Positions 17,115 to 19,550 of a stretch of 64,000 bases of DNA are shown here, in pieces; within the stretch, counting starts at the first letter, position 1; the number at the start of each line of letters is the position of its first letter. The stretch lies in NCBI GenBank assembly GCA_024761205.1, contig JAMASS010000004.1, forward strand, positions 372,001 to 436,000, given 5' to 3'. Under the pieces are notes generated by a model, which was given only the letters and a program-made list of their open reading frames with translations, was not told where the DNA came from and searched no databases. The position numbers and the translations under genes are program-made. The DNA comes from Limisphaerales bacterium (lineage in GTDB: Bacteria > Verrucomicrobiota > Verrucomicrobiia > Limisphaerales > AAA164-E04).

Positions 17115-17150
17115 CAAAAAAACGCCGTCACAGACACGGTCTGTGACGGC
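17115..17150 (-). terminator. Rho-independent terminator of the four-module Cys/His protein gene
   Basis: GCCGTCACAGAC and GTCTGTGACGGC form a perfect 12-bp stem with a 3-base loop (17124-17150). On the minus strand it is followed by a run of seven T. It lies 27 bp past the stop of the gene ending at 17177. Confidence 0.92.
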
Positions 17151-17176: not shown

Positions 17177-18322
17177 CTACTTGAGGTCGATCTTCGAAGC
17201 TGTGAATTCAAGCTGATTCTTAATCTTGGAAACTGTTCCCTCCGCAACAACAGCCACGGAATCCTGGCAAACGTAGCGGTGGAACTTCTTGCTGACACTA
17301 TTCTGATCGAGAATGTAAATTATGTCCTCGCCGTCCACAGATACCTTGATGACATTCTGACAGGTTCGGCTCTTGCCCATCTCACATTTCAAGCAGAGCC
17401 CCGTACCTTCCAAGGTCTTAGTTTCCTGCACCGCCAATTTGGTTGCCGTGAACACGGGCCGTCCACCTTCTCCAGAGAGCGCACCTGTCGCTACGATGTT
17501 GGCGGTCGACGAACAAACGTTTTTGTGGAACGCTTCACTGACATCATTGGCGGCAAACAAATAAATCACTTCCTTGCCATCCTTGGTCAATTTCACTGCA
17601 TTCTGGCATTGCGCCGTTTCGCCTAGCTCACACTTCGCACACATTCCGAGGCCCTTGATCGTCAGCTGCTTGTCCGGCGCGGCTTTAGCTTTGGCTACTT
17701 TCTTCACTGATGCCTCTTCCGCCGACTGCTCCTTGGCCGCAACTTTGACCAGCTCAATCTTGGCTGCAGTCAATTTCTTCACCCCGGAGAGTCCGGCAAC
17801 GTCGCCGATCTTGCCGGTTGCGACGACCTCGACCGTGTTTTGGCAGACATGCTTGTGAAAGCTCTTGCCCACGTCGTCATGCGCAATGACATAGAGAACT
17901 TGCTTCCCGTCTTCATCGATCCGGATGCCGTTTTGACAACTAGGGGTCAAGCCCAAGGCACACTTCAGGCAAAGACCTTCGCCCTTAACGACTTCCTCTT
18001 TGCGGAGGCTCAGTTTGTTGGCGGTAAAAACCTTCTTGCCGCCAATCTCTTTAAAGAGGCCCACCGCTGAAATACTAGTGCTGCCGGAACAAAGATTCTT
18101 ATGAAAGGCCTTGCTGACATCATTGGCGGTCAGCAAATAGACGACCTCTTTGCCATCGACCTTCACCTTTATCGCATTCTGACATGTGTCTGTCTGCCCC
18201 AGCGCACATTTTGCACAAAGACCCACACCGTTGAGGGTCACCGATTCATCAGCGGCTATTTGTTGCGGCACGGCGGCCAACAGAAAGAAAATCGCTCCTA
18301 AGGAGCCCCATAACTTTTTCAT
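17177..18322 (-). CDS. Secreted protein with four Cys/His modules (DUF6370-like)
   Basis: The 381-residue protein has a signal peptide (MKKLWGSLGAIFFLLAAVPQ, cleavage near AAD). The ATG at 18322 is preferred to one eight codons upstream because the signal starts there. Four modules of about 80 residues follow at roughly 26-106, 107-186, 226-302 and 303-381, with a Lys/Ala-rich linker between modules 2 and 3. Each has the pattern CxKCxxGxxxxCQN, then a Tyr strand, then FH(K/R)xxC, giving four Cys and one His per module. Modules 1 and 3 share CAKC and AFHKN; modules 2 and 4 share GLCLKC, so the array is ABAB. Single-module relatives are small secreted proteins of unknown function. I infer a metal- or ligand-binding envelope protein. 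A terminator follows, so it is probably transcribed alone. Confidence 0.85.
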   Translation of the reverse strand: MKKLWGSLGAIFFLLAAVPQQIAADESVTLNGVGLCAKCALGQTDTCQNAIKVKVDGKEVVYLLTANDVSKAFHKNLCSGSTSISAVGLFKEIGGKKVFTANKLSLRKEEVVKGEGLCLKCALGLTPSCQNGIRIDEDGKQVLYVIAHDDVGKSFHKHVCQNTVEVVATGKIGDVAGLSGVKKLTAAKIELVKVAAKEQSAEEASVKKVAKAKAAPDKQLTIKGLGMCAKCELGETAQCQNAVKLTKDGKEVIYLFAANDVSEAFHKNVCSSTANIVATGALSGEGGRPVFTATKLAVQETKTLEGTGLCLKCEMGKSRTCQNVIKVSVDGEDIIYILDQNSVSKKFHRYVCQDSVAVVAEGTVSKIKNQLEFTASKIDLK

Positions 18323-18481
18323 TTTCAAACCAAGGGTATGTTGCAACGTTTACTCTAGCCTAATCCATGTCTCCAGAGATTCATTGTCCGGATAAAGATC
18401 CTGAAAATAGAATCCAAGGGAGTTTCTTGTCAGTCTCTAATTATAGTCACCGCCTCTCCGCCCCGCAACCCTTATTCCCGC

Positions 18482-18577
18482 CTAGGGAAACTCTGATCTA
18501 ATCCCTGAACTTTGCTGTTTTCGGTGATTTTTCCAGAGAAAACCGAGTCTCCGGTTATCTAATCAGAGTTTCCCTAG
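18482..18577. mobile_element. 96-bp element with 16-bp terminal inverted repeats
   Basis: CTAGGGAAACTCTGAT (18482-18497) and its exact reverse complement (18562-18577) bound an AT-rich core of 64 bp that holds no gene. The size and ends fit a MITE or the joined ends of a deleted insertion sequence. I cannot identify the parent element. Confidence 0.65.
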
Positions 18578-18784: not shown

Positions 18785-19155
18785 TCATTTTGAGGCCAAG
18801 GCAGACACTGGCTCGTCCAACAAAAGCAATTGCAGTTTCGTCGCTAACGCACGGGAGATCGCAATCCGTTGCCGTTGTCCACCCGACAACTCAAACGGTT
18901 TCTTTCCGCTGTGTTCTAACAATTGGAATCGTTTCAGCAACGCCCCAGCGGTCGCTTCCACCACCGCCCGCCGCTTGGCCATGAACAACCGTTGACGGCA
19001 AGGTAATGTTCTCCTTGGCCGTGATGATGAGGAAACAAATTAAACGACTGAAAGACGATGCTCAATCGTTTCCGATAATCTCTGAGCCGTTTTTCGTCAT
19101 AAGTCCGTGTTATCCCATTGAGCCGGATCGAACCCTGATCGGGAACAAGGAGTAG
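18785..19155 (-). pseudogene. ABC transporter ATP-binding subunit, internal fragment
   Basis: Two frames together give the middle of a polar-amino-acid-type ATPase. The first is GSIRLNGITRTYDEKRLRDY then [14 protein letters not shown], which carries the Q-loop. After a frameshift come [10 protein letters not shown], the signature [17 protein letters not shown], and Walker [12 protein letters not shown]. The Walker A region and the H-loop are both absent. The upstream end is joined in frame to a restriction endonuclease remnant at about 19155, so the fragment reached its place by a deletion or rearrangement. It cannot be functional. Confidence 0.88.
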
Positions 19156-19550
19156 GTTTTGCTTGCCTGCCTGGTTCTTGATCCATCGTTCAGCCCCTTG
19201 GGAGTAGCCGCCCCCGTCAAGCACGATGATCGTGTCGAATTTGCCTAGACCGATCGACAACACCTCGAAGGGGTATTTTCTTCGACGCTGCCCTGCGAAG
19301 CCTGCCAATTACACTGAATGACAAGGCTGTTTGGCCAGCGTTGCGGGCGGCAAAGGATGAAGTCTACGCGCCGTTTCTTGCCGTAGATATCGTGTCCGAT
19401 GGGCATTTGTTTCGCGTAAATGGCCTAGAGCAATTCCCGCAACGCAAGAAATCGGGATGGCGTCACGTATTGGTATTCTTCATCGAGTCATTCCATTATA
19501 GAATGCTCTAGCATTTTCCCTCTTCGGTTGGCTCGAATACCTTTAGTCAT
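19156..19550 (-). pseudogene. PD-(D/E)XK restriction endonuclease-like protein, broken
   Basis: From the ATG at 19550 the translation is MTKGIRANRRGKMLEHSIME, a stop, DEEYQYVTPSRFLALRELL, a stop, then GHDIYGKKRRVDFILCRPQR and PNSLVIQCNWQ. After a one-base frameshift near 19280 it reads KYPFEVLSIGLGKFDTIIVL then DGGGYSQGAERWIKNQAGK. The Asp of VDF and the strand IQCxW are in the right places for a PD-(D/E)XK nuclease core, but Asn stands where the catalytic Lys is expected. The C-terminus is lost into an ABC ATPase fragment. Its ATG overlaps the end of the methylase remnant (ATGA), as in translationally coupled restriction-modification pairs. Confidence 0.72.

What the first reader, a model, noticed from the sequence alone, without database searches (positions are those of the whole stretch)
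17177..18322. Secreted protein with four Cys/His modules in an ABAB arrangement
Each module has CxKC, CQN and FHxxC marks. Modules 1 and 3 resemble each other, as do 2 and 4, so a two-module unit was duplicated. Single-module relatives are small. A four-module chain with a Lys/Ala linker could bind several metal ions or make a disulfide-linked array. It is intact amid decay and has its own strong terminator, suggesting it matters.
Basis: partly seen in the sequence, partly recalled or inferred. Interest (0 to 1): 0.7.

Follow-up and report, generated by a model that had tools for sequence, protein, structure and literature searches.

The report
Secreted four-domain Cys/His metal-binding protein
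A marine verrucomicrobial bacterium secretes a protein made of four linked copies of a small, uncharacterised barrel domain (DUF6370), each with the same four cysteines and one histidine; its relatives sit next to zinc-uptake and heavy-metal-efflux genes, so it is most likely a four-site metal-binding protein of the cell envelope.

Summary
Window 17177-18322 (-) encodes a 381-aa secreted protein with four modules carrying CxKC-x7-CQN...FHxxxC; its only 16 Cys are these. Modules 1 and 3 pass Pfam DUF6370 on their own, modules 2 and 4 do not. A module tree supports ABAB (2+4: 96/89; 1+3: 87/79), but AU tests do not reject other pairings. The four-module gene is present, whole or in pieces, in all 11 searched genomes of its family (three genera) and under purifying selection; the other searched genomes of the order carry single modules, apart from one independent three-module protein. 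AlphaFold2 (pLDDT 94) gives an OB-fold whose topology puts the four Cys and the His at one pole. The CCCHC pattern is kept in 115 of 118 full modules. Single-module relatives lie in CobW/ZnuA zinc-starvation clusters, and distant DUF6370 proteins lie beside CusA/CzcA efflux pumps, some with His-rich tails. Best reading: DUF6370 is a periplasmic OB-fold binder of a soft metal (Zn2+ or Cu+), and this protein is a four-site version, probably a buffer or chaperone. Metal binding is inferred; most loci, including every four-module one, have no metal genes nearby. Disulfides remain the main rival.

The parts
17177..18322 (-). four-module secreted DUF6370-type protein, 381 aa plus stop
   Evidence: orthologues; dN/dS 0.07-0.08 between close orthologues
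18251..18322 (-). Sec signal peptide (residues 1-24, no lipobox); predicted by eye
   Evidence: sequence MKKLWGSLGAIFFLLAAVPQQIAADE; low pLDDT over 1-25
18005..18247 (-). module 1 (type A), residues 26-106; Cys36, 39, 47, 78; His74
   Evidence: DUF6370 28.8 bits, cut-off 25; tree
17750..18004 (-). module 2 (type B), residues 107-191; Cys118, 121, 129, 160; His156
   Evidence: no DUF6370 hit on its own; groups with module 4
17672..17749 (-). Lys/Ala-rich linker between the two AB pairs, residues 192-217
   Evidence: sequence; pLDDT under 50 over 194-217
17420..17671 (-). module 3 (type A), residues 218-301; Cys228, 231, 239, 270; His266
   Evidence: DUF6370 30.9 bits; OB-fold model, pLDDT 94
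17180..17419 (-). module 4 (type B), residues 302-381; Cys310, 313, 321, 352; His348
   Evidence: no DUF6370 hit on its own; tree
17124..17150 (-). intrinsic terminator, 12-bp stem then T-run
18440..18468 (-). possible promoter: TTGCGG, 17 nt, TATAAT; found by eye, not by the scan
   Evidence: sequence

Best explanation
Each module is a small OB-fold barrel (b1-b2-b3-helix-b4-b5) exported to the cell envelope. Its four invariant Cys and one invariant His lie in the b1-b2 connection and in and just after the helix between b3 and b4. In an OB-fold these are the same pole of the barrel, so they can form one site for a soft transition metal, most likely Zn2+ or Cu+. The four-module protein joins four such sites as two tight AB pairs on a flexible Lys/Ala linker and would act as a multi-site buffer or chaperone. 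Shown: the gene, four modules, residue conservation, family-wide retention and purifying selection. Predicted with high confidence: the OB-fold of one module. Inferred: export, clustering of the five residues, metal binding, which metal, and the buffering role.
For: CCCHC is complete in 115 of 118 full-length distinct modules; an invariant His beside four invariant Cys is expected for a metal site and not needed for disulfides. AF2 on module 3 with 64 modules: pLDDT 94, OB topology; PDB matches are OB-folds, including the periplasmic Ag/Cu chaperone SilF at Z 6.5. Single-module relatives form clusters with CobW GTPase, WD40 protein and ZnuA (L105/L108 type; L046 with CobW and WD40) or with CobW, ZnuA and a ThrRS-like gene (L052); Haas et al. 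2009 (PMC2770081) describe COG0523-WD40-znuABC clusters and ThrRS paralogues as zinc-limitation genes. CobW hits: five within 3 kb of the module, none further out in the same loci. Distant DUF6370 genes lie next to CusA/CzcA efflux pumps in three families (L163, L148, L160), one followed by two YHS-like proteins, and two have His-rich tails.
Against: No metal-related gene is linked to any four-module locus, and most single-module loci have none either. The protein is exported, where Dsb systems may oxidise Cys pairs. The CobW cases come from only two arrangements, so they are not five independent events. OB matches below Z 8 show the fold, not the function.
Confidence: 0.55

Rival explanations
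1. The four Cys of each module form two disulfides that stabilise an OB-fold outside the cytoplasm; the chain is a structural or ligand-binding array (protein, glycan or inhibitor function) and the His has another role.
For: Secreted protein with an even number of Cys and no spare Cys; other envelope OB-folds such as NlpE and potempin A match the model equally well.
Against: The His is as invariant as the Cys; relatives are linked to metal genes.
Confidence: 0.28
2. Redox-active envelope protein in which CxKC is a thiol-disulfide active site.
For: CxKC is invariant in the verrucomicrobial branch.
Against: Not a thioredoxin fold; two further Cys and a His are equally invariant; no Dsb-like neighbours were seen.
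Confidence: 0.07
3. OB-fold nucleic-acid binder (SSB/PriB-like) with structural metal.
For: Top structural matches are SSB and PriB.
Against: Apparent signal peptide; OB is a common fold with Z under 8; no sequence match to solved structures.
Confidence: 0.03

Closest known systems
Pfam DUF6370 (PF19897), single-module secreted proteins
   Same: Same domain; modules 1 and 3 pass the cut-off; same CCCHC set
   Different: Four modules instead of one; modules 2 and 4 diverged beyond the model
CusF/SilF periplasmic Cu(I)/Ag(I) chaperones
   Same: Small periplasmic OB-fold; distant DUF6370 genes lie next to CusA/CzcA pumps as CusF/SilF do next to CusA/SilA
   Different: No CusF sequence match; no Met/Trp/His site (the only Trp is in the signal peptide); predicted site at the helix pole with Cys ligands
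NlpE C-terminal OB domain
   Same: Envelope OB-fold (Z about 7)
   Different: Structural match only; no test of shared Cys arrangement or function

Membership tests
DUF6370 (PF19897) | Score above Pfam gathering cut-off | tested here: met
   Modules 1 (28.8) and 3 (30.9) above 25 bits; modules 2, 4 and the full chain give no hit. Single-module homologues score 35.6-47.2.
DUF6370 (PF19897) | Conserved C..C, C, H, C set shared with distant members | tested here: met
   distant members L032, L033, L035, L160 keep the same order
CusF/SilF | Sequence match to the CusF family | tested here: inconclusive
   Not listed by hmmscan of Pfam up to E 10 for the protein or its modules; the scan's filters can drop weak matches
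CusF/SilF | His/Met/Met/Trp metal ligands | tested here: not met
   One Trp (signal peptide) and three Met in the whole protein; SilF ligands from PMC10656224
OB-fold | Five-strand barrel with helix between strands 3 and 4 | tested here: met
   (prediction)
Metal-binding protein | Bound metal ion | not testable with these tools
   needs purified protein

The most novel reading that the evidence does not exclude
DUF6370 is a further class of OB-fold dedicated to metal binding, using a Cys4/His site at the helix pole, and this lineage built a four-site envelope metal buffer from it by tandem duplication, with a separate three-site version in another family. A 2023 paper states that SilF and CusF are the only OB-fold proteins whose sole function is metal binding (PMC10656224).
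Probability: 0.4. Interest if true: 0.62.

Novelty: new variant of a known kind. Interest (0 to 1): 0.45.

Why it matters
DUF6370 is uncharacterised: no paper in the library searched names it or PF19897. The neighbourhood evidence gives a testable function (zinc or copper handling in the envelope) for a domain found in 167 of 293 genomes searched in this order, and the four-module gene, kept across a family that seems to be largely marine, is a compact object on which to test it.

Tried and rejected
Operon partner for the four-module gene: none; flanking genes differ between genera. Plasmid copies: none found with two single-module queries. Viral copies: none found. Solved relatives by sequence: none, best E 0.58. 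ORF clustering of neighbours in GC-rich loci was too noisy and lost many centres; it was replaced by probe searches. NCBIfam: no credible hit. Full-length model: pLDDT 76, pTM 0.40, so relative placement of modules is not interpretable. The three-module protein of L011 was considered as an intermediate but its modules cluster together (93/89), so it looks like an independent multiplication.

Full report
WHAT IS THERE. The gene lies at window 17177-18322 on the minus strand and encodes 381 residues: a Sec-type signal peptide, module 1 (26-106), module 2 (107-191), a Lys/Ala linker (192-217), module 3 (218-301) and module 4 (302-381). Each module has CxKC-x7-CQN and FHxxxC. All 16 Cys of the protein are in the motifs, and no shuffle of 20,000 gave even one module. 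A strong terminator follows the gene. Upstream, from about 18785, are fragments that read by eye as a broken ABC ATPase and a methylase.

FAMILY. Modules 1 and 3 are DUF6370 by Pfam's own cut-off; modules 2 and 4 are not recognised, nor is the full chain. Single-module secreted relatives of about 105-125 aa score 36-47 bits. In the order, 167 of 293 genomes carry the domain. In the listed matches the four-module chain occurs only in the window's family: all 11 genomes searched there (three genera) have it whole or, in fragmented assemblies, in pieces. Elsewhere in the order the listed proteins are single-module, apart from one three-module protein (L011). Named records place the family in marine Pedosphaera-like Verrucomicrobia. 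Close orthologues show dN/dS of 0.07-0.08.

ABAB. In this protein only modules 1 and 3 stand out by identity (56%, others 38-47%). With orthologues, modules 2 and 4 form a group (96/89) and 1 and 3 form a group (87/79), each outside most single-module proteins. Quartet columns pooled over five orthologues favour 13|24 by 21 to 9 to 6. AU tests do not reject other pairings (p 0.15-0.31), as expected with 81 columns. The duplication of an AB unit before the family radiated is therefore the best-supported reading, not a proven one.

FOLD. AlphaFold2 on module 3 with 64 modules gives mean pLDDT 94 and strands 2-10, 23-29, 32-38, 56-65, 72-80 with helices 11-15 and 42-50. This is OB-fold topology, and the PDB matches are OB-folds (SSB, PriB, NlpE, potempin A, SilF; Z 6.5-7.8). 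In module numbering the conserved residues are C10, C13, C21, H48 and C52: the end of strand 1, the strand 1-2 connection, the helix and the start of strand 4. In an antiparallel OB barrel these are at the same pole. That is an inference from topology; no coordinates were available. The full-length model keeps all four folds, with modules 1-2 and 3-4 almost abutting and a disordered linker between the pairs, but its pTM is 0.40.

FUNCTION. Three lines point to metal. First, CCCHC is intact in 115 of 118 full-length distinct modules. Second, among 78 loci with a located module, five have a CobW GTPase within 3 kb and none has one further out. In the L105/L108 type the order is CobW, WD40, DUF6370, then ZnuA (shown by Pfam in L108), and in L052 CobW and DUF6370 lie beside a second CobW, a ThrRS-like gene and ZnuA. 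Haas et al. (PMC2770081) describe exactly such COG0523-WD40-znuABC clusters and ThrRS paralogues as zinc-limitation genes. Third, distant DUF6370 genes in three families lie next to CusA/CzcA heavy-metal efflux pumps (L163, L148, L160), one of them followed by two YHS-like Cys proteins, and two carry His-rich tails. Against this, no four-module locus has a metal gene nearby, and most single-module loci do not.

MECHANISM. The most likely mechanism is binding of one soft metal ion per module in the envelope, with the four-module chain acting as a higher-capacity buffer or chaperone. CusF and SilF are the nearest analogues: periplasmic OB-fold Cu/Ag chaperones, which a 2023 paper calls the only OB-folds with metal binding as sole function (PMC10656224). 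DUF6370 differs in ligands and in the predicted position of the site, and no sequence match to CusF was seen, so it works like, but is not shown to be, a CusF-family member.

VERDICT. A real, conserved, lineage-specific four-module variant of an uncharacterised domain, with a plausible and testable metal-handling function.

Noticed in passing
window 18482-18577: A 96-bp element with 21-bp terminal inverted repeats (CTAGGGAAACTCTGATTAGAT), MITE-like, just upstream of the putative promoter; 16 matches to the repeat in the genome with up to 2 mismatches, some in facing pairs, and none of the reversed control pattern.
   Followed up: partly
window 18785-19308: Frameshifted fragments that read as a broken ABC-transporter ATPase on the minus strand.
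   Followed up: no
G000:C78:81012-81353 (L002, L161): A diverged single-module paralogue in the same genome (CQA instead of CQN, insertion after CQA) that gives no DUF6370 hit; similar copies in G002 and G003.
   Followed up: partly
L011 / L167:2589-3386: A three-module DUF6370 protein in another family of the order, apparently an independent multiplication.
   Followed up: partly
L058:3346-3807, L126:8678-9163: A His-rich secreted protein (HxPHGG) with no Pfam hit recurs near single-module genes and CobW.
   Followed up: no
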